A stretch of 64,000 bases of DNA from Fragilariopsis cylindrus CCMP1102 (lineage: Eukaryota; Bacillariophyta; Bacillariophyceae; Bacillariales; Bacillariaceae). Location of the stretch: NCBI GenBank assembly GCA_900095095.1, contig FMBT01000309.1:310001-374000 (forward strand), in the 5' to 3' direction. This document shows positions 9,966-44,725 of the stretch, piece after piece (within the stretch, counting starts at the first letter, position 1; every line of letters begins with the position of its first letter). Position numbers and translations under genes: made by a program. Under the pieces are notes generated by a model, which had not been told where the DNA came from, ran no database searches, and saw only the letters and a program-made list of their open reading frames with translations.

Positions 9966-12381
9966 CTTGAGTTTCTATGCTCAAAGGTATTATTATATTT
10001 AGTAGTAAAAGAAGAAAAAGTAATGTATGCTACTAGTAATGGCTTTTTGCGCATGTACAAGTGTAATTGTACACTGGATGTAGTATGTCAGAGTAAGAAT
10101 ATGAGACGCAACTAGCATTCCGCACAAGTTGTATCACCGTACAGTATGTATTTGTGGGTTACATTAAGAGGATTATTGATATTCGTTTTTTTTTGTATCA
10201 ATTTAAGTTTTGTTTAGCGATTTGAGCGATTTTAGTATGTTTATGTTTTTATGCTCTTTGATACAAACTAGTGTGCTAACGGCTAAATTAGTCTTTACTA
10301 GCTCGTAATTTTCAATCGTAGGAAAAAAATCATAATTTTTTTAGTCGCGCAGCCGTTGCTTTCTTGAAAAAATGAGGGGGGCTATGGTAAAACAAAGAGA
10401 AGTTATTGTTTTGGTCGCGAAGCATAATTAGTAATTTATGCGAAGGCTTAATTTACTAATTTTTCTAGTAATTAGTATCAGTAGATTAGTTAGATAGTAG
10501 ATTACTAATTTTTCTAGTAATTATTAGTAATAGTAGATTAGTTAGTTGAATGACTAATTAAGCTACTATCTAGTAATGTAAGTTACAAATTTGAATGACA
10601 TACTTTTAACAAGACAAGAGCCCATTAAATAATACAAAATTTCTTTCTCCCCTTCTTTTTCTTGGATTTATTTTGTCACACTTTACTTTTAATTGTTGTT
10701 GTCATCATCCCCAATCAGTAGTAGTTGTTGAGATACTACAATGGTTGATCCTGTTTATAACATGGCCATGTCAATGGAGATAATTTTTCCTTGTAAAATG
10801 TACAACTGCAAGTACAGCAAGCAAGTACAAGTTAATTTTATGTGCTGTATCGGGCCATCAAATATACAATAAGACAAGAAGTATTACTTGCAGGCATTCT
10901 ATGCTACACATACTTCACATGGTGGGATCCATCATTGTCTTTATATTTTAGTAGTTTCACGTACTGTCACCACAACAGTGTACCTTGAGTTCATACCTAT
11001 GGAAGGTATACCCTCCCTTCCCCTTTATTGGATATCATTTACCTTCCTACTGCACCCAATCTATGCGCAGCAAGTACTTTTATAACACATCTATTTCATG
11101 ATCCTTTTATATTAAATATAAGATCTTCCTCTCGCACCTTCTAAGAATAAATAAAAACTACCATCTACCTTTTATCCGTCCAGCCTTTTGTTCTGTTGCA
11201 TCATTTGACAGGGTCCTGTTCTTTGACCATCAGCCATCAGGACCGGCATGCAGCTTGATTCCTGGAGAATTTTTTTGACATTGACTTCTATCTGCTTTTT
11301 TGTTTTAATTCCCCAGTATACTGATTGGAGAGCAGTCCCTTCTATCTTTTCATTTCTTTTATACAGCTGCTAAATCCTGTCCTCTGAGCCAATTTGATTT
11401 CCAATCCTTTTGGTCCCAATATCTCCTCAATTTGATTCCTTCATGTTGATTGCATCACGTCAAGTCAACAAATTCCATAACTTCGCATCTCTTCATCTCT
11501 TTTTCTAGTAGTAGTATTTATGTGCTGTGCTCTACTCTGGTGCAACAACAATAAGCAACCAATTGATCCATGCACAAGCAGAACAAAAAATGATAAAAAT
11601 GGATCAATTATATATGGTAGACATGTACACTAGTTGAAGCCCTAACATGTACACATAATTTAATTTAACTCATTGATTTACTATGTGATATATATATATA
11701 TATAAATATGTATATTTTATTAATCTAACAAAAAAAAACAAAAGTAGATAGATATAGCAGACTATTACGTCTTTAAACTCGCCTCCGATAAGTGAAGAAT
11801 AATACAACTTCGGTAGAACGACAGAACTTGCCACTAGTTGCTTAATAAGCAACAAGGCAATAATTACTGTATATTGTATTTGAATGAGAATACATGTTGA
11901 TGAATATCCAAATCCTCACAAGATTTGAATGTCACCTGGAAATCAATCCGTAAGATAGAATGAGATTAGACCACAAAGTGGAATGGACGAATCATCATTA
12001 CACCAACCAATAGTAACAAATTATTGGTAAGTGTTAGACGAATCAGTAGTATCCAATTACTGAATCATCATAACTCACTAATCAGTAGTAACCAATTACT
12101 GATAAGTGGACGTTACGCATCTGGATATCAGACCATGTTGAGCATCATACATGTAAATTTAAAAGCTCTTTCAAAGCAATAGACAATAATTATACAAATG
12201 TATAAACACAAAGCGATACCATAGATTATTCATTCCATTGTGAGCGTTGATGGAGTACTCAAGGCGGATGAACAGGGTCTTGGTGATCATCTTGGTGTTC
12301 CAGAACAGGTAGTAGTAGAACTCGGCAGTATATGTAAACAAAGAGATACTCTACGGGTATCTTTGTATACAAAAGGCTGGC
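9966..12381. other. 2.4-kb gene-free region with repeats
   Basis: No credible gene on either strand. At 10320-10435 there is a segment flanked by GTCGCG motifs (AGTCGCGC and GGTCGCGAAG) with a G-run between, resembling the arms of the fold-back element at 39.95-40.49 kb. At 10448-10495 and 10500-10548 a roughly 50-bp unit (TTTTTCTAGTAATTA core, then AGATTAGTTAG) is duplicated. At 12007-12107 three related short units (CAGTAGTA-CCAATTACTG) are partly self-complementary. The segment 11160-11500 is less AT-rich and may be eroded transposon DNA, but I could not identify it. Confidence 0.5.
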
Positions 12382-13617
12382 TTAGTATACATTTCGAAAC
12401 GCCCACATATCCCAAGCAACAAGAGTAAGCTTTAGAACAAGAGAGGTCGTCATTCTCTCCGTGTTGTAAGCCTGTTTGAAGTGCTGATGCTGCTGTTCAA
12501 GGTGGAATTGATATCGTTGTTTACCATGATAATGTTGTTGTTCTTTTTCTTTTGCTGTTTTGAATTCCTTGGGTGAAGATGACGAATCGAACCATTCTAT
12601 TGTCTTGTCCTTACGGTGGATGCTGTGTGCAATGATGTTTGCTTTGTTGTTATCGTCGTAGGTACTTGTACTGTAGTTAATGAATGATGTGTCAAATTCG
12701 GTGCTGTTATTACTACTATTATTATTATTATCATTGTTATCATTGGATGCCAGTTTGTACATACGACGGTTGTTATTCAAAGCTTTTTCTTTGTCATTCT
12801 TGTCGTATATGCTTGTATTGTAGTCAATGGTAGTAGTAGTAGTGGTAGTAGTAGTAGTTGAGGTTGCGCCGTTGTTATTATTATTAGTAGTAGTAATTTT
12901 GTTGTTGTTGTTGTTGTTGAGTAACAAATCAAACCATTCTACTGTTTTGTCCGTACGATGGATGCTGTGCTGCGCAGTGTTTGCGTCGTTGTCGTTGTCG
13001 TCGTAGGTTCTTGTATTGTAGTTAATGGTTGGGGTAGTAGTAGCAGTAGCAGTGGTTGAGGTATCAGCAGTAGATGATGCGTCAAATTCGTTCCTCTTAT
13101 TGCTATTGCTATTATTATTATTGTTATCATTGGCTGCAAAATATAGAGAGGAAGGATGGAAGGTCTCGTCGTTGACATCAGCATCGGTATCGGCATCAGA
13201 GTCGTCTTCGAATAGAAAGGGGAGGTGGAAGGTCTTGTCGTTGGTAGACGATGTAACGGTTGAAGCGTAATCGATGCTGTTTCTGTTGCTATTATTATTA
13301 TCGTTGGCTGCCAATGTGATTGGTAATAATTTGTCCATACGACGGTTGTTATTCAAAGCGATTTCTTCGTCATCCTTGTCGTTGGTGCTTGTATTGTAGT
13401 CAATGGTAGTAGTAGTAGTAGTAGTAGTAGTAGCATTGATTTCACCATCGTTGTAACAAATAACGTTATTCTTGTTATTATTAGCAAATTCGGTGAAAAA
13501 GATATCAAAAGGAGTGAATGGAAAATCAAAAATATTGCTAGAATTTTTTGAGGAGTGACGTAAGTGGAATTCACCAGGTGGCCTACCGGTTGAACCATAG
13601 TTAGTGGAATTGGGCAT
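12382..13617 (-). CDS. Asn/Thr-rich repetitive protein with duplicated module
   Basis: I do not recognise a function. The 411-codon frame is dominated by poly-Asn and poly-Thr, but it also holds a repeated non-random core. Block A (TTT-IDYNTS...ALNNNRRM.KL) occurs at about residues 64-100 and 255-290. Block B (YNT/STYDDN..., then SIHR.DKT.EWFD) occurs at about 190-230 and 315-350. Conserved residues survive outside the homopolymers, which suggests selection at protein level. An upstream frame (to about 13796) containing a hydrophobic stretch (SLLLLLTFIIV) joins this one if one T is missing in a T run near 13626, so the true start may lie further upstream and the product may be secreted or membrane-bound. 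Expression is unproven. Confidence 0.5.
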   Translation of the reverse strand: MPNSTNYGSTGRPPGEFHLRHSSKNSSNIFDFPFTPFDIFFTEFANNNKNNVICYNDGEINATTTTTTTTTIDYNTSTNDKDDEEIALNNNRRMDKLLPITLAANDNNNSNRNSIDYASTVTSSTNDKTFHLPFLFEDDSDADTDADVNDETFHPSSLYFAANDNNNNNSNSNKRNEFDASSTADTSTTATATTTPTINYNTRTYDDNDNDANTAQHSIHRTDKTVEWFDLLLNNNNNNKITTTNNNNNGATSTTTTTTTTTTIDYNTSIYDKNDKEKALNNNRRMYKLASNDNNDNNNNSSNNSTEFDTSFINYSTSTYDDNNKANIIAHSIHRKDKTIEWFDSSSSPKEFKTAKEKEQQHYHGKQRYQFHLEQQHQHFKQAYNTERMTTSLVLKLTLVAWDMWAFRNVY

Positions 13618-14209
13618 ATCAAAAACTTGTTCTTTGGTGTCAGAATGTGAGAAGTGCGATCTTTCAAAAATCGAGTGAGATAATTAATTTCTGGGAGCAC
13701 CCTATTTTCGTTCGAAGCAATCAAAAAAAAGGGTCTTTGTCGTAAATTTGGAGGTGTTGGTTTGACAATGATAAAAGTCAATAACAGCAATAACAATGAT
13801 AGAATTAGAGAGATCGTAGTTATATTAGTCTGTATGGGTTGTATTAGGCATTGGAATGAAGGTTAATAGGGTGAAAATATTGGGTAAAGTTGAAAATTTG
13901 GTGTGTAGGATTCTACGTGTCTTGAGTACTAGGATTTATTTAGGTTTGACGTCCACGAAAAACGTGGGAAGTAACATGTACACATACTGTAGCAACAAAT
14001 TCCTTTCCATCTAAATTGCTCATACTGTACTCTTATTTCTTAATAATTTATGCATTATTCTTTTTAAGCAGATTCTGAAGATGCGTTCTAAGCGAGTTCC
14101 GTTGAATGACTATCTGAATCAGCACGTGCATAACATATCCACACATAATAATAATAATATATTATCTGTCAATAAAATCTAATATATGTAGCTAGAAGTA
14201 CGTTTTTAA

Positions 14210-14248
14210 GCGTTACGACGCGACTAACCCGACGACGACTCGTAACGC
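14210..14248. repeat. Perfect 9-bp inverted repeat upstream of the ice-binding gene
   Basis: GCGTTACGA (14210-14218) and TCGTAACGC (14240-14248) are exact reverse complements around a 21-nt GC-rich loop. This is a local GC-rich island in AT-rich DNA, about 600 bp before the ice-binding protein start. The rest of 13618-14301 shows no gene. Confidence 0.75.
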
Positions 14249-14301
14249 CGTACGAGAGTTTTTGCGCCGCGGAAAACCGTTGGTTTTTGAGCGATATTTT
14301 T

Positions 14302-14655
14302 GTGACTCAGAAATGTGTCATGTACTTAAAACCGCTCAGATAATTGCACCGTCTTTAACTTCATCGTCCTGAGCTATTGTTTAAGTAACTTAATACTACT
14401 CAAGCTGAATATCGTTTTCCACTTCATCGCCCGAGCTGTTTTTGAAGTACTCAATACTACTCAAGCCATCTTTCGTTCGTGACTCAGAAATGTGTCATGT
14501 ACTTAATACTACTCAGATAATTACACGTTTTCCACTCTATTGCCCGAGCTGTTTTTGAAGTAACTTAATACTACTCAAGCTGATTATATCGTTTTCCACT
14601 TTATCGCCCGAGCTGTTTTTGAAGTACTTGATACTACTCAAGCTATCTTTCGTTC
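14302..14655 (+). promoter_or_regulatory. Tandem 177-bp repeat block immediately upstream of the ice-binding protein gene
   Basis: Two head-to-tail copies (14302-14478 and 14479-14655, both 177 bp) begin GTGACTCAGAAATGTGTCAT and end TCTTTCGTTC. Each copy is itself built of three shorter units of roughly 60 bp. Each short unit carries a CTTAATACTACTCA-type box, and between boxes sits a TTTTCCACT..AT..CCCGAGCTGTT segment. The result is six ordered boxes within about 350 bp, ending 182 bp before the ATG at 14838. The position fits an amplified promoter or enhancer, but no factor can be named from sequence. Confidence 0.8.
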
Positions 14656-14837
14656 ATATTACCTAGCGATTGTTGGAAAAGTAATTTCTACTACCACTTA
14701 ACTACTGCATTGTCAACGCTCTAACGCAACGATGAACTTTTTTTTCTAAACTACGCACATTGAATACATATCCTCACAAAAATACAAACCTGACAAAGAA
14801 AACACACAAGAACCAATTCCATCAATCCAAATCTAAA

Positions 14838-15605
14838 ATGATGAACCTTAATCTATTTATGCTCTCTGCGGCCGCAATGGTCAATGCTGCCAGTGGCGAA
14901 AACACTCTCTTTGTCGATCTTGGAACTGCAAGTGATTTTGCCATCCTCGCAAAGACTGGTATCTCCACTGTGCCCGCCTCGAAAGTTACCGGTGACATCG
15001 CCGTCTCGCCCATCGCTTCGGCTGCCATTACTGGCTTTAACTTGGCCATGGACAGTTCGGGCGAGTATTCGACTGACAGTGGAAGTGCAGGAAGCCAGTT
15101 CACTGGACACGCCAAAGCGCCGAACTATGGCCATACCACTGCAACTGAATTGACCACCGCGGTCCTTGACATGGAGACCGCGTACACCGACGCCGCCGGA
15201 CGTGACACCACTGCCACCAATGGCATAGCCAACCTAAATCTTGGAGGAGGCGACTTAGGTGGCAAAACGTTGACATCTGGTGTTTACACTTTCGATATTG
15301 ATGTTATCATCTCCACTGGTAATACGCTTACCTTCCATGGCGATTCAGATGCCGTATTCATCATTCAGACATCGAAGAGCGTTAAGCAAGCCATTGACAC
15401 CAATGTAGCTCTCACTGGTGATGCGAAGGCAGAAAACATCTTCTGGGTAGTTGCTCAAGAGGTTGTTGTTCAGGCAGGTTCGCATTTGGAGGGTGTCCTC
15501 TTGGTCAAGACGGGTGTTACCTTCATTACTGGTTCCAGTTTGAATGGCCGTGTCTTAGCACAAACAGCGGTCACCCTCCAGAGCGCGACCATCGATGCTG
15601 CATGA
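14838..15605 (+). CDS. Secreted DUF3494 ice-binding (antifreeze) protein
   Basis: An intron-free 255-residue protein. Residues 1-17 form a signal peptide (cleavage likely after VNA), so it is secreted or extracellular. The rest is one DUF3494 domain, the beta-solenoid ice-binding fold of sea-ice diatoms, snow moulds and bacteria: DLGTASDFAILAKTGIST, VTGDIAVSP at the start; LNLGGGDLGGKTLTSGVY mid-protein; NIFWVVAQEVVVQAGSHLEG and SSLNGRVLAQTAVTLQSATI at the end. It adsorbs to ice crystals and inhibits recrystallisation. The ATG at 14838 is preferred over upstream non-ATG codons because it starts the signal peptide; 14841 is an equivalent alternative. Codons are visibly GC-richer (many GCC, GGC, ACC) than the neighbours. 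That fits the bacterial transfer proposed for this family. The repeated block at 14302-14655 directly precedes it. Confidence 0.95.
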   Translation: MMNLNLFMLSAAAMVNAASGENTLFVDLGTASDFAILAKTGISTVPASKVTGDIAVSPIASAAITGFNLAMDSSGEYSTDSGSAGSQFTGHAKAPNYGHTTATELTTAVLDMETAYTDAAGRDTTATNGIANLNLGGGDLGGKTLTSGVYTFDIDVIISTGNTLTFHGDSDAVFIIQTSKSVKQAIDTNVALTGDAKAENIFWVVAQEVVVQAGSHLEGVLLVKTGVTFITGSSLNGRVLAQTAVTLQSATIDAA

Positions 15606-26722: not shown

Positions 26723-26856
26723 CAGGAATTGGGATGGCTATTTTTGCTCAAGGATCTTTTTGATTATCTGGCTTCTTGAATAAAATGTAAGGAATTCTGA
26801 TGACTTATTCTTGTTTAAGGATCTTTTTGATTATTTGGCTTTGTGAATAAAATCAT
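26723..26856. repeat. Tandem duplication, 67-bp unit
   Basis: AAGGATCTTTTTGATTAT followed by TGGCTT and TGAATAAAAT occurs at 26750 and 26817, with related sequence before each anchor. The copies differ at several positions, so the duplication is not recent. Confidence 0.75.
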
Positions 26857-28871
26857 TATTTTCACGTTTATACTCTGATAGTTGACACATATTTTCACTC
26901 CATAACATATGATTCTTTTTACATCCTAATTTATTATTCTTTTTTGTAAGTAGTAGACTACTACTTGAGTAGTAATCTTCCTCCTCCTTGTCATCATCCT
27001 CATCATTGGAAGTATAACCACAATTTTTCTTCTCCAAGGAACCTGATCTCCTAAGACATTGAGTATATTGCCATATAGTATGCACACTATGATTCTATTC
27101 TAACACGGCTCCTATGTGATATCTTCTAGTTATTCTTTGTACCTCAAAATAATGGTCATTTTTGCTGCTAGTTAGTATTGCCTAAACCCACACTCAGTAA
27201 ACTACTGTATTAGTTTTCCCACATCTGTATGGTTAGTATCACCCACCATTAGCAATTGATTCAAAAGTATAATAAAAGGAATATGTACCAGCTTTGGCAA
27301 ACATTTGTAGCCATTTATATGTTGCTGTCATTGTTGATAGCTTGGACCAAATGCGTTGAAACAACACACCATACCAACAAACATAGTAAACAATATACTA
27401 CTTACTACAATATGAAGTTTAAATTAATCGTGGATTGATTGTCAAATCGATGACAGTTTAGTTTAGTTTGGAGAATGAATTTTGAACCACCCAAATTAAA
27501 TATCCTCCTCCTCAAAATGGAGCAGTGATTATCATTACATAGTAGAAAATTCCTTGTTGTTGCAATAGCATGGCAGAAATATTGCCATAAATTTGAATGT
27601 GAAGTCAGTAATCAGGCAACTGCCGGGACATTTTTGATGAGTGACCAACTAAACTGGAAGGCAATTTACTTGTAACATATTGTGATCAATCTACATTCTC
27701 ATCCAAATTGTGAATACCAATAATGAATAAGTGAGAGGCATTCTGGGTGTGAGGTTCTAATCAAGGAGCTAAAATTTGGATCACATCAAACTATTCATTG
27801 AAAATCAAACAGCAGGTACAAGGTAGTAAAACCCATACCTGTATACTTATGCACCCTCTCTCAAAAATGATCAACCAACCTTGTACTTATCTTATTATAG
27901 ATCACTAAGTAAGGTCAAAATAATGCAAGAGGGATGATAATGGAGATGATAGCCCACCCAGCAGCATGTATGATGTATGGGAGTTAATACTTTGGTGGGA
28001 TTCAATTCTACTCCCACAAAGAAGGCAAGGCACCGCACACCATACATACGAATTGAATTATTGGTTGGAACAAACTACTCACAACCTATGATCTCATCAG
28101 TATAGTATAAATCTAAGGTGGATGATTAGATTGCTATGTCACATCATTCATTCTATCAATCCCTTTACAGTGGTATGGATGAGTGTTGGAGTTGATGCTT
28201 TGTTGATGGTCAAATTATCATTATTTGGTTTGATATACGGTAGCGAGACACGAAGAAGTCATTGAACTTTACTAATATCAATTCCCATCGCGCTACAAGA
28301 GTAAATCACGTAAAATACCATGCGGAAGGCGAAATTCATTCGTGGGTCTTCATGTAGGAAAAATAATAATAGATATGCCCCCCGCCCGTCAATTTGAGTT
28401 CTACTCATTGTACGATTAATTATTACCGGTGTACTGTACATTCAGTAGTAGTAGTAGTAGTAGTTAAACCGTGCCGATATATACAGTAAGAGTGCGGTAA
28501 AACCTCGTTTGTTGATAAAAGTCAAAAGTCGAGAAAAGGCGATGTCGTGTAATAATACAGTCTATTATTATTGCTTGATTTTTTTCATTTTGTCAGATCC
28601 AATCTCAGGCAAATATGCCTACAACTTCGTACCTTCTTGTGGCTTTTCTTCTTGATATCATAATATATATATTATATACTTTCTATCCTCATTCATTTTA
28701 CATTCTCATAAAAATGCAAAAGCAAACACTGCAATCATAAATTACGATAACCTTTATACAACGCAACGCCAGCGACCGACAAGAACATCAACGCACAACA
28801 ACGCACAACGTACCATCATCATCATCATCAATCATCATCATCATCGTTATCAACAACGCACAACAATAAGG
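26857..28871. other. Gene-poor 2-kb stretch
   Basis: No convincing gene. The composition between about 27450 and 28250 differs somewhat from simple AT-rich spacer and could be eroded transposon sequence, but no protein motif or terminal repeat is recognisable. The last 100 bp before 28872 hold an ATC/ATCATC repeat and the presumed 5' untranslated region of the EGF gene. Confidence 0.4.
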
Positions 28872-31800
28872 ATGTTACTTTCGAATGCTTGTTTCACCAC
28901 CTTCCTTTTCCTCACCCTTGTCGTCGTTCCTTCGGCCGTAGCAATAAACTCAAGTGGCGTCGCCGTCCTAGCACAACTCAAGCAACAGAGCAAATCTACA
29001 ACTTGTGATTTAGATTGTCCTTCATTTGCACCATGTGTTTTTGGTTATGCTGATTTTTCAGAACGTAAAGTTGATGTGGTGGCGACACAACAACAATTGG
29101 GTGGACGTGGAGGAGGAACACATCAATCTGGTATGCATTGTGATTGTCCAATTGGTTGGACAGGATTATTTTGTGATATTAAATATGATTCCTGTACATC
29201 TAATAATCAAGCACATCATGAATGTTACAATGGTGCAGAATGTATGATTGGATTATTAGAAGACCAATACGGCAATGAGCAACTATTTTGTGACTGCAAC
29301 AGTATTAATGGCTACGTTGGTAAATATTGTGAAACACCAATTCGTGATGATGATCCGTTCAATCCTATAGTTCAAGACGACGATGACAATGATCCATTCA
29401 TTTTTCTCAACAGAATGATGACAATGATCCGTTCATTCCTAAAGATGAAAACGACGACGATGACAGTGATCCGTTCATTCCTAAAGGTCAAGACGACGAT
29501 GACAATGATCCATTCAAACAAGACTCCTCCTCCAAAACAACAACAATCCCATGTGGTGATGGACATTGTCTTAATGGTGGTAGTTGTTTAATTGTACAAA
29601 AGATTTCGAAAGATGGAACGTATAAAATGAATGAAAGTTGTAATTGTGATGGTGCGTACGATGTTACATCAAATTCAGTTTTTCGTGGACCATATTGTCA
29701 ATATAAATCAACAAGTTTGTGTTTTTCTTCAAGTTCAAGTAGTAATAATGGAGAAGAATCATCTTTGTTTGGTAATGAAGATTATTGTTTACATCATGGT
29801 ATATGTAAAGCAAAAGGTGACAAATTACAACAAGGGTGTGACTGTAATAGTGGATGGACTGGAAGAAATTGTCAATTGAAAATATTAGAACTAATTGATG
29901 GTATTGACGATGACGATATCGATGTCGATGGCGATGGTGATGATAATGATCCGATTGATAACTGGATCGCTGCCTCAGATGATGATAATGATCCGATTGA
30001 TAACTGGATCGCTGCCTCAGATGATGATAATGATCCGATTGATAACTGGATCGCTGCCTCAGATGATGATAATGATCCGATTGATAACTGGATCGCCTCC
30101 TCGTCTTCAGATGTATGTGGTGATACACACTGCTACAACAATGGATCATGTGTACAAACTCAAAAATTAGATTCAGATGGCATACCTTCTCTTAGCTTTT
30201 CTGTGATTGTAGTACAGCTTACGACGAAAAGTATCTATATGCTGGTACTAGTTGTGAATTCCCATCGACAGATCTTTGTCTTGAAGGAGGAGATGGATCT
30301 AATTTCTGTGTCAATCATGGATCATGTGGAGACGATGTTCTATTGGGTTGTAATTGTCCTCCTGGGTTTGTAAGTTAGTTCCTTTGAACTTGAATTTGAA
30401 TTTTGTTACTGTTATTCCTTGACGTGTGTATCCATGTTTGTGTATGTGTATAAGTGTCTCGACATTGAAGTTCTTTTCTAACGATGATACTTTTATTCCC
30501 ATTACTATCTTTGTTCTTAGCACGGATTCAAATGTGAGTTTGAGGAGAAGCATGGCAATTTTGATAAAGATGACAATGACAATGACGGCCACGACGACGC
30601 ATTTGATAAGGATGGGTACCCTGCGGGGACGACAGATGCCACAACCTCGGCAAGTGTATCACAACCGTCGTTTACAACGAGGACATTGATAGTACGGAAA
30701 CAACCTCCACATGTGACTGTACAGGTACAGATTATTTCGGTCTACAATGTCAATATTCAGCAACAAACTTTGAATACGATAATAATAAAGAAGGAGACGA
30801 AGATAATAATGGAGAAGAACGGGAGGCATGCGGGGATGATCTAGTCTGTAACAACTTCGGCAATTGTATCACAAGCATAAAAATTAACAAGAAACAGATA
30901 CCACCGAAGCAAGCTTTCGATGCGACTGTGTTAAGACAGGTTTTATGGGACCACAATGTCAATACCCAACAAGTACAAGTAACATCAACGATGAAATAAC
31001 AATGAAGATCCACCTACAAGCAACGATGGTAGTGAGTTTTTTGATTGTCGCTTGAATTGTTTAAATGTAAGTTCAAAGTTTAGTAATATTACGCGATCGA
31101 GTTGGATCTTCCAGAAGAAGAAAAAGAGAGAGAGAGAGAGAGGTAGCACGAGAGAAATTGTATACTACTGACCATTCGCCATTTTTTTTTTTTGCTTGAC
31201 TATATCCAGGGGGGGAAATGCACTCAAGGCGAGGAAGACTCGGGATTTCTGCGTGATGTTCTCGGAGACGACAAGACGCACGCCGGAGACCACTTGGCTT
31301 ATTGTGAATGTAAAGAAGGATGGATCGGTCTGTAAGTTTAGCCTAGTTTTGCATGTGGTTGTTGACGTGGTTGTTGTTGGCGTGCATGTTCAATGGGACC
31401 TTCTCTCTTACCTACCTTCTTTTCTACTTCCTTCTTCTTTCTCAGCACTTGTGAATATCGTGTTGAGATTTGTGAAGACAAACACGTTTGTCTTCACGGA
31501 TCAAAGTGCGTTGGTAATTTCATCGACGGGTATTCATGCGCCTGTGACGAAGCCGATTGGAAGAATGACAAAGCGTCTGCTTTCGCGGGAGACTCTTGCC
31601 AGTACACTGCCACCGGCACTGATATTTGCACTATTGGAGAGGAATATCCGGGAAAGCCGCTCTACTTTGCGTGAATTCAGGAATCTGCCATGCTTTTGTT
31701 TCAGGCGATCAGCCCAATCCAGGCTGTGTCTGTCCAGAAGGCTGGATGGGCATTCATTGTGAGATCCGTACCGATAGATTGGAAACTATTGGTGATAAGG

Positions 31801-39952: not shown

Positions 39953-40486
39953 GAGGTCCGCGAGCGATTCTGGCGGATTAAAATTAATCTTGGAGGTGGA
40001 GGAATGGGAAATTTTCAATGCGACCAACTAAACATTTATGATAATAAAATTAAGTTTTGGGGGTAATTATTTTTAGGGCAGTAATATTAGACTAATATAT
40101 ATATTAGTCCGGCTAATAAATATATTAATTAGACTAATATATATATTAGTCCGGCTAATATATGTTTTAATAAGCATAACCAAAATCGAGCTCGCACAAA
40201 CTATAATAACAAATTTATTCGCTATTAAACTACGAGCTCGAATTATCCTCAATAAACTCACTAATATATATATTAGTCCGGCTAATATATATATTAATTA
40301 GACTAATATAAATATTATTCTCACTAATATATGTTACTTAATATTTCGCGACCAAATATAGTCCCCCAAAACATATCAAGTATGCCCCCAATTAAAATTT
40401 GGTCGCGAAAAAAAATTTCCCCTTGGCCCTCCACGCGCGTTTATAAATTTTTAATCCCGCTTGTATATCGTGAATCGCGGACGCTC
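39953..40486. mobile_element. Fold-back (long imperfect inverted repeat) element of about 530 bp
   Basis: Left arm 39953-40063 and right arm 40363-40486 align in reverse complement over a chain of matched blocks. These are TCCGCGA near both ends; GCGGATTAAAATT against AATTTTTAATCCCGC; GTGGAGG/CCTCCAC; GGGAAATTTT/AAAATTTCCC; GCGACCAA/TTGGTCGC; and GTTTTGGGGG/CCCCCAAAAC. The central part holds three copies of the perfect 18-bp palindrome ACTAATATATATATTAGT (40091, 40133, 40260), each followed by CCGGCTAATA. Two GAGCTCG palindromes lie between. No coding capacity. It is best read as a non-autonomous fold-back or MITE-like element. Confidence 0.75.
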
Positions 40487-43116: not shown

Positions 43117-44725
43117 TTAAATGAAGTATTCACCCTCAATATTCTTCGCATATCCTGTTCCAGCTTTACCGTAGATGATTCGCGTACTAATTACTCCCTC
43201 AACCATCGTAATCTTCTCTTGGACGTTCTTGAATTCTACAACTCCATCGTGTTTAGTTGTATCGATATCACAAACATTGTACGCAATGTCTCCTCGAGAA
43301 TGATTGATTTGTTGCACAATATTGAGTCCTTCTGAAGAAATCGCATCTGTGATGGCCGCCAATGCTCCTGGAACGTTCTTGTTGACCACAGTGAAACGAA
43401 CAGTTTCTTTTGGTCGATCTTCTAAGTTAGTATCAGGGAAATTCACACTGTTTTTGATTGTACCATTCTCTAAGTAATTTCGAATGGTATCAGCAGCCAT
43501 CGATGCGGCGGCATCTTCAGCTTCTTCAGTCGAGGCACCTAAATGCGGCAAAATGATAGTATTCTTGTGATCCCAGAGTAAATCTTCAGGGAAGTCCGAG
43601 ATATATTTCCCATCACCACTGTCTAAAAATTCTTTCATAGCATCCGAATCCACCAACTCACCACGAGCAAAATTCATAAGAACGGCATTGGGACTGAAAT
43701 GTGAAACGACATCCTTTCCAATAATTCCATGTGTTCCTCCTTCTCCCTTGACGTATGGGATGTTGATGGAAATATAATCCGCACCTGACACAGCTGTTGT
43801 AATAGAGTCGACTAATTGCATATCACGGGGTAATTTCATGGCTGACTGAACACTAAGACCAGGATCATAACCCTTAACATTCATTCCTAAACCTTCAGCA
43901 TCTCGTGCAGTCATGGCTCCAATATGACCAAGTCCAATAACTGCTAAAGTTTTTCCCTTAATTTCTTGTCCACCAAACATGGCTTTATCTTTTTCTACAC
44001 GTTCTCTTGCTAATCCCTGTGATCCAAGATCTTTCATATGATTAATTCCATCAACAATCTTTCTTGATCCCAACAACATAGCACAAAGGACTAATTCCTT
44101 AACAGCATTTGCATTAGCACCAGGCGTGTTAAATACAGGAATACCCAATTCTGTCATACGAGGAACAGGAATATTATTGGTACCAGCACCACATCTGCGT
44201 TTGGATAATTTGTATATATGTTTTTGAAGTAGTTAGACAAAAAATGACGAACGGTGGTCGTGAGAATTATTTTATTGGCGGAATAGAAGTCCAGACAAAA
44301 TCATCAAATACACACTTCACACAACACATCATTAAAAAAAGGCTACCAATGGAATACTATTATTATTTTTCAATTTTTTGCTCGTACCTTGCAATTGCTC
44401 GAACTGTATTTGGTACATCATCTTCTTGAAGTTTGTGCGAACGCAGTAGAATTGCATGTGCGTTAGCAGCTTCATCTTCACCCGTTCGGACATCATATTG
44501 ATCAGCATGGAAACGTGCTAAACCAACCGGTGAGACCTTGTTAAAAGTTTTGATCTGATACTTTCCCTGTTGATAATTGGATAAGTCACCATATGTTTGC
44601 CAATCTCCACGACCGTGTTCAACTTCGACACCGGTAGACATGCGAGCAGCATGAATTGGATTGGCAGCAACAGTACGACTGCTGCTGCGAATAACCTTCT
44701 GTAGGGCAGCACGGGAGGCGATCAT
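43117..44725 (-). CDS. D-3-phosphoglycerate dehydrogenase, paralogue 1 (mitochondrial-type presequence)
   Basis: Catalyses the first step of the phosphorylated serine pathway, 3-phosphoglycerate to 3-phosphohydroxypyruvate with NAD. Exon 1 is 44725-44388 and exon 2 is 44194-43117 (phase 2 junction), giving 471 residues. A basic Ser/Arg-rich N-terminus (MIASRAALQKVIRSSSRTVA) suggests mitochondrial targeting. Catalytic core: CGAGTNNIPVPRMTELGIPV, NAD-binding AVIGLGHIG, NFARGELVDS with the substrate Arg, and ILPHLGAST with the catalytic His. A C-terminal ACT domain (FTVVNKNVPGALAAITDAIS) implies allosteric control. It lies head-to-head with paralogue 2, 480 bp away. Confidence 0.93.

What the first reader, a model, noticed from the sequence alone, without database searches (positions are those of the whole stretch)
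14302..14655. Amplified 177-bp upstream repeats in front of an ice-binding protein gene
Two exact-length 177-bp tandem copies, each made of three related shorter units, place six ordered CTTAATACTACTCA-type boxes in a 350-bp block ending 182 bp from the start codon. Copy-number growth of a putative control module next to a freeze-tolerance gene is a plausible route to stronger or graded cold/salt induction. The repeats are seen directly; the regulatory role is inference.
Basis: partly seen in the sequence, partly recalled or inferred. Interest (0 to 1): 0.8.

Follow-up and report, generated by a model that had tools for sequence, protein, structure and literature searches.

The report
Repeated promoter block before ice-binding gene
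A block of DNA just ahead of an alga's ice-binding protein gene arose by duplication and carries the same short box six times, which looks like a cluster of landing sites for a switch protein but has not been shown to respond to cold or salt.

Summary
Two 177-bp head-to-tail copies (14302-14478, 14479-14655) agree in 157 of 179 aligned columns, score far above shuffled DNA and end 182 bp before the ATG of an intact DUF3494 ice-binding protein gene (14838-15605). Six boxes lie in one orientation, five strong and one decayed. Corrections: only two of three units per copy are related along their length; the first shares just the 16-bp box. The box resembles a doubled TACTYAA, 10 bp apart, exact in one copy. 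Box spacings fall near whole helical turns (post hoc). No other copy lies in the window.

Most likely it is a homotypic cis-regulatory cluster, as shown for the PWL2 promoter repeats of Magnaporthe. Cold or salt response is untested. Against function: between the copies, boxes are not better conserved than the rest (5 of 48 versus 17 of 131 columns). A neutral old duplication is a serious rival. No genome of the source was searchable, so the deciding comparison could not be made.

The parts
14302..14478 (+). copy 1 of the 177-bp repeat (units 1-3)
   Evidence: TRF and pairwise alignment, 157 of 179 columns identical to copy 2
14479..14655 (+). copy 2 of the 177-bp repeat (units 4-6)
   Evidence: as above
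14302..14322 (+). A-type spacer of unit 1, GTGACTCAGAAATGTGTCATG, with a TGACTCA (bZIP-type) site at 14303-14309
   Evidence: sequence; identical to unit 4 spacer, no similarity to B-type spacers; TGACTCA positions
14479..14499 (+). A-type spacer of unit 4, identical to that of unit 1, TGACTCA at 14480-14486
14323..14338 (+). box 1, decayed (3 mismatches)
14387..14402 (+). box 2
14448..14463 (+). box 3; with the following base a perfect doubled heptamer TACTCAA-TAC-TACTCAA (14448-14464)
14500..14515 (+). box 4 (consensus TACTTAATACTACTCA)
14562..14577 (+). box 5
14625..14640 (+). box 6, 197 bp before the ATG
14656..14837 (+). 182 bp between block and ATG; presumed core promoter and A/C-rich 5' leader (TSS not mapped)
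   Evidence: sequence read; inference
14838..15605 (+). apparently intronless 255-aa DUF3494 ice-binding protein gene with signal-peptide-like N terminus (by eye)
   Evidence: PF11999 E 2.9e-52, residues 36-252; best solved relative 6a8k, E 1.8e-73; open frame

Best explanation
The block is a cluster of like transcription-factor sites (a homotypic cis-regulatory cluster) in the promoter of the ice-binding protein gene. It was probably built in two steps: an older duplication of a ~62-bp unit (units 2/3), then one duplication of a three-box, 177-bp segment. The working element is most likely the 16-17-bp box, a doubled TACTYAA motif with 10-bp period that a dimer or two side-by-side proteins would read from one face of the helix. 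The boxes recur about every 5 or 6 helical turns, so the bound proteins would face the same way towards the core promoter. The TGACTCA site beside boxes 1 and 4 is a possible bZIP input. Shown: sequence, order, spacing, position, uniqueness in the window. Inferred: duplication order, protein binding, activation, and any response to freezing or salt.
For: Position and intact target gene. Non-coding block: 4 to 6 stops in the two best-scoring frames of each of the two 303-bp segments at 14200 and 14500, and no stop-free stretch over 58 aa. Six same-strand boxes and none elsewhere in the window at <=3 mismatches. ACTCA cores on the + strand: 8 within 350 bp against at most 3 elsewhere. The box is shared by two unit types whose spacers show no similarity, p 0.96-1.0 in 8 comparisons (the two A-type spacers are identical, so in effect 4), which singles it out. 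Doubled heptamer: consensus p 0.017 over all offsets, unit 3 p 0.0004. Helical phasing p 0.005 (three spacings) or 0.016 (two), post hoc. Precedents: 48-bp tandem repeats with a 12-bp motif drive PWL2, and inducibility varies with copy number (PMC8035637, passages). A stramenopile (Phytophthora) bZIP binds TGACTCA (PMC11267843, passage). Several F. cylindrus IBP isoforms are reported induced by freezing and salinity (PMC8991070, passage).
Against: Between the two 177-bp copies boxes changed about as often as other columns (5 of 48 vs 17 of 131), and box 1 has decayed. Clustering of the unchanged runs is not significant (p 0.05-0.07; longest run p 0.38). Five of the six single boxes show the doubled heptamer only imperfectly (3 to 5 of 7) and none of those five is significant over all offsets. 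Unit 5 resembles units 3 and 6 (87%, 90%) more than its counterpart unit 2 (82%), so the simple two-step history is not clean. Other tandem duplications lie outside the listed ORFs in the window (10455-10559, 26724-26853). Phasing and doubled-heptamer tests were chosen after seeing the sequence, and the spacings are not independent. No relative of the block from another species, allele or IBP gene was available.
Confidence: 0.5

Rival explanations
1. Neutral tandem duplication: an old replication or recombination accident in intergenic DNA, with no effect on the neighbouring gene.
For: Boxes and linkers diverged alike between copies (5 of 48 vs 17 of 131); box 1 decayed; other two-copy duplications of 49 and 67 bp outside the listed ORFs.
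Against: The box also occurs in units whose other sequence is unrelated, which simple duplication does not give, although a short recombination tract could; ordered same-strand spacing; highest TRF score of the window, 550 against 188 for the next array outside the listed ORFs, its own inner 64-bp row (227) set aside.
Confidence: 0.33
2. The block mainly serves the divergent asparagine/threonine-rich reading frame at 12382-13617 (-), or both genes as a shared bidirectional promoter.
For: The block lies in the 1,220-bp gap between the two starts; the frame is open for 411 codons with positive codon score 0.161 bits/codon.
Against: 684 bp from that start against 182 bp from the IBP start; that frame has no Pfam family and is low-complexity, so it may not be a gene.
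Confidence: 0.06
3. Remnant of a mobile element, or seed of a satellite array with nucleosome-sized (177-bp) period.
For: Period in the usual range of satellite monomers (recalled).
Against: The one inverted pair of 12 bp or more found in 13800-15200 (13919-13930 with 14446-14457, 92%) has an arm inside the block, not at its ends. No other copy in 64 kb, only a 13-nt exact match at 44219-44231. Only two copies. No exact match of one degenerate box pattern in the viral or prokaryote collections (these are not eukaryote collections, so weak).
Confidence: 0.08
4. Transcribed structured RNA or small coding repeat.
For: 177 is divisible by three.
Against: Folding z-scores +0.86 and -0.98 for the two strands; the longest stop-free stretch touching 14250-14700 is 58 aa and none spans the block; no Rfam match at gathering threshold.
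Confidence: 0.03

Closest known systems
Tandem repeats of the Magnaporthe oryzae PWL2 promoter (PMC8035637; passages read)
   Same: Imperfect tandem repeats upstream of one condition-induced secreted-protein gene; a short motif inside each repeat; repeats needed for expression, and inducibility varies with copy number.
   Different: 48-bp repeats, three copies (two to three among strains), 12-bp motif TTATGCAAGCTT; functionally proven, and the motif is found upstream of other effector genes. Here a 177-bp two-level repeat, a different motif, and no functional test.
Promoter of the Antarctic diatom Chaetoceros neogracile Cn-isoAFP (PMC5666426; 12 of 13 passages found)
   Same: Upstream region of a diatom antifreeze protein gene, stress-induced, with predicted stress elements.
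   Different: Elements there are promoter-database predictions; the passages read mention no tandem-repeat block. Sequence not compared, as the figure is not held.
Fragilariopsis cylindrus ice-binding protein family (6a8k, called 'Ice binding protein 1'; organism recalled)
   Same: Closest solved relative of the encoded protein (residues 26-254 matched, E 1.8e-73).
   Different: Diverged paralogue or species; no upstream sequence of that family was available.

Membership tests
DUF3494 (PF11999) ice-binding proteins | Full-length Ice_binding domain match | tested here: met
   PF11999, 177.8 bits against cut-off 28.7, residues 36-252 to profile 1-207 of 208
Homotypic cis-regulatory cluster / tandem-repeat promoter | Several copies of one short motif close upstream of a gene, beyond chance | tested here: met
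   6 boxes in 318 bp, none elsewhere at <=3 mismatches, expected 1.38 in the window, 0 of 100 shuffles reach 6
Homotypic cis-regulatory cluster / tandem-repeat promoter | Motif conserved more than its surroundings | tested here: inconclusive
   Across unit types yes; between the two 177-bp copies no (5 of 48 vs 17 of 131)
Homotypic cis-regulatory cluster / tandem-repeat promoter | Motif bound by a factor and needed for expression | not testable with these tools
   Needs DAP-seq, ATAC-seq or reporter assay
Homotypic cis-regulatory cluster / tandem-repeat promoter | Motif shared with co-regulated genes of the genome | not testable with these tools
   Own genome not held
bZIP (AP-1/GCN4-type) site | TGACTCA core | tested here: met
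   14303 and 14480; but 7 such heptamers in the 64-kb window over both strands, these two included, so weak on its own
Satellite / mobile element | Further copies elsewhere or terminal inverted repeats | tested here: not met
   Window only: no other copy; the single inverted pair found does not lie at the block ends

The most novel reading that the evidence does not exclude
A gene of bacterial origin was given a eukaryotic, graded freeze/salt-responsive promoter by stepwise duplication of a native regulatory unit. The result is a helically phased array of six doubled-heptamer boxes plus two bZIP sites, read by a stramenopile factor whose site is not yet described. Box number and decay would tune induction between alleles and strains.
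Probability: 0.15. Interest if true: 0.65.

Novelty: new member of a known kind. Interest (0 to 1): 0.35.

Why it matters
Algal ice-binding genes are thought to come from bacteria (PMC4009763, passage), so each must have acquired a eukaryotic promoter. A compact, internally repeated block next to such a gene is a concrete candidate for how that happened, and it can be tested by deletion and by comparing alleles. As an example of repeated promoter elements it is not a new kind of system.

Tried and rejected
RNA structure on either strand and Rfam at gathering threshold: no signal. Coding repeat: no stop-free stretch over 58 aa against 118 codons of block. Hairpin at the boxes (six pieces of 39-42 nt, shuffle control on the + strand only): energies within about 1.2 standard deviations of shuffles. 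Mobile element or satellite: no support in the window. Box conservation between copies as proof of function: tested and not found. Standard stress or promoter motifs (strings recalled) in 14000-14838: one CCGAC (14229), one CACGTG (14123) and one CCAAT (14813), all outside the block, and no TATAAA; CCGAC, CACGTG and CCAAT occur 55, 13 sites and 175 times in the window, so uninformative. Relatives of the block in viral and prokaryote collections by one degenerate exact pattern: 0 and 0. The IBP protein search kept 80 of 124 relatives, bacterial or archaeal by record title (best segment 52% identity), and found no relative in viral contigs. Those loci were not used further because prokaryote upstream DNA does not bear on a eukaryote promoter. 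Species: a sea-ice Nitzschia draft genome has 46.8% GC (PMC13149256, passage), above every 2-kb step of this window, so it fits less well than the F. cylindrus guess; neither is proved. Passages of PMC9133084 were read and not used.

Literature: ten searches (listings capped at 20 of 101, 12 of 263 and 10 of 27). No listed title or abstract start announces tandem repeats upstream of a diatom ice-binding gene; I read passages only of the papers named here.

Full report
What is there. The window is eukaryotic nuclear DNA: Pfam finds PAN3 pseudokinase, DnaJ, alpha-adaptin, PAF67 (eIF3L, name recalled), NOL10 and GcpE/IspG domains, with no tRNA or Rfam match. G+C per 2 kb is 33-45%. The gene at 14838-15605 encodes a 255-aa DUF3494 ice-binding protein (PF11999, E 2.9e-52), closest among solved structures to 6a8k (E 1.8e-73; next 4nu3, 1.6e-45). 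I recall 6a8k as a Fragilariopsis cylindrus protein, so a polar diatom is likely, but the species is not established. No genome is held for this window.

The repeat. TRF gives 14302-14655, period 177, 2.0 copies, score 550; the highest top score in 20 dinucleotide shuffles of the window was 59. The copies agree in 157 of 179 columns: 18 substitutions, 14 of them transitions, and 4 gap columns. The gaps cancel, which is why both copies are exactly 177 nt. At about 0.1 substitutions per site this looks like an old duplication rather than recent amplification (inference).

Units. Cut at the boxes, units 2, 3, 5 and 6 form one family (pairwise 77-95% identity). Units 1 and 4 form another (90% to each other as cut there). 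Unit 5 is closer to units 3 and 6 (87%, 90%) than to its counterpart unit 2 (82%), so either unit 2 drifted faster or there was some homogenisation. Compared whole, box included, unit 4 scores above every shuffle against each of units 2, 3, 5 and 6, and unit 1 does not. Without the box, the A-type spacer shows no similarity to any B-type spacer: 8 comparisons, all below the shuffle mean, p 0.96-1.0. The spacers of units 1 and 4 are identical, so these are in effect 4 comparisons, and the linkers in front of the spacers were left out. The box of unit 4 differs from those of units 2, 3, 5 and 6 by 1 base each, that of unit 1 by 4. This is the best internal evidence that the box is the functional part, although a short recombination tract could also spread it.

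The box. At up to 3 mismatches TACTYAATACTACTCA has 6 matches in the window, all in the block; 1.38 expected, 0 of 100 shuffles reach 6. With one more base the consensus reads as two heptamers TACTYAA / TACTCAA 10 bp apart: 6 of 7 positions match (p 0.0038 at that offset, 0.017 over all offsets), and unit 3 has 7 of 7 (p 0.0004 over all offsets). The other five boxes have 3 to 5 of 7; four of them are below 0.05 at that one offset, none over all offsets. TACTCAA occurs exactly five times on one strand of the block and at most twice in 1067 overlapping 354-bp windows elsewhere; at up to one mismatch the figures are 8 and at most 6.

Spacing. Box starts are 64, 61, 52, 62 and 63 bp apart, that is 6.1, 5.8, 5.0, 5.9 and 6.0 turns at 10.5 bp per turn. 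Counting the independent spacings as three or two gives p 0.005 or 0.016. This was tested after seeing the data and the spacings share ancestry, so it is suggestive only.

Function. The block is non-coding, shows no RNA-fold signal, and lies 182 bp before the ATG in a 1,220-bp gap between divergent reading frames. TGACTCA, present once per 177-bp copy, is a target of a bZIP of a stramenopile, Phytophthora infestans (PMC11267843, passage). Seven such heptamers occur in the window over both strands, so its presence is weak evidence. The nearest functional precedent is the PWL2 promoter of Magnaporthe oryzae, whose 48-bp tandem repeats carry a required 12-bp motif and whose inducibility varies with repeat number (PMC8035637, passages). 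Several F. cylindrus IBP isoforms are reported induced by freezing and salinity (PMC8991070, passage). A diatom antifreeze gene is induced by freezing, heat and high light, but its promoter elements are database predictions (PMC5666426, passages).

Against function. Between the 177-bp copies the boxes changed in 5 of 48 columns and the rest in 17 of 131, so there is no sign of extra constraint since the last duplication. Unchanged runs are not significantly clustered (p 0.05-0.07). Tandem duplications of 49 and 67 bp occur elsewhere in the window outside the listed ORFs. The deciding comparison, the same promoter in other strains or the other IBP promoters of the genome, was not possible. One degenerate pattern scanned through the viral and prokaryote collections found nothing, which says little for a eukaryote.

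Verdict. The regulatory reading is the most likely single explanation (0.5) but not shown; the cold/salt part is inference. The kind of system, repeated promoter elements, is known.

Noticed in passing
26724-26853: A second tandem duplication outside the listed ORFs (67 bp, two copies, TRF 84% matches), followed at 26965-26974 (-) by an exact TACTACTCAA half-box, the only exact one outside the ice-binding promoter block. No gene could be assigned nearby.
   Followed up: partly
13919-13930: A single TTGAGTAC-containing stretch, inverted relative to the boxes and paired with 14446-14457 at 92% over 12 nt, about 370 bp upstream of the block.
   Followed up: no
14210-14248: A 9-bp perfect inverted repeat (GCGTTACGA ... 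TCGTAACGC, read by eye) just upstream of the repeat block.
   Followed up: no
40084-40332: Two arrays of a 21-bp, ATATATATTAG-rich unit outside the listed ORFs.
   Followed up: no
29938-30096: A 42-bp tandem repeat (3.8 copies, 100% matches) inside a reading frame with a weak EGF-like Pfam match below its cut-off.
   Followed up: no
12382-13617 (-): A 411-codon Asn/Thr-rich low-complexity frame with internal repeats, divergent from the ice-binding gene; no Pfam family.
   Followed up: partly
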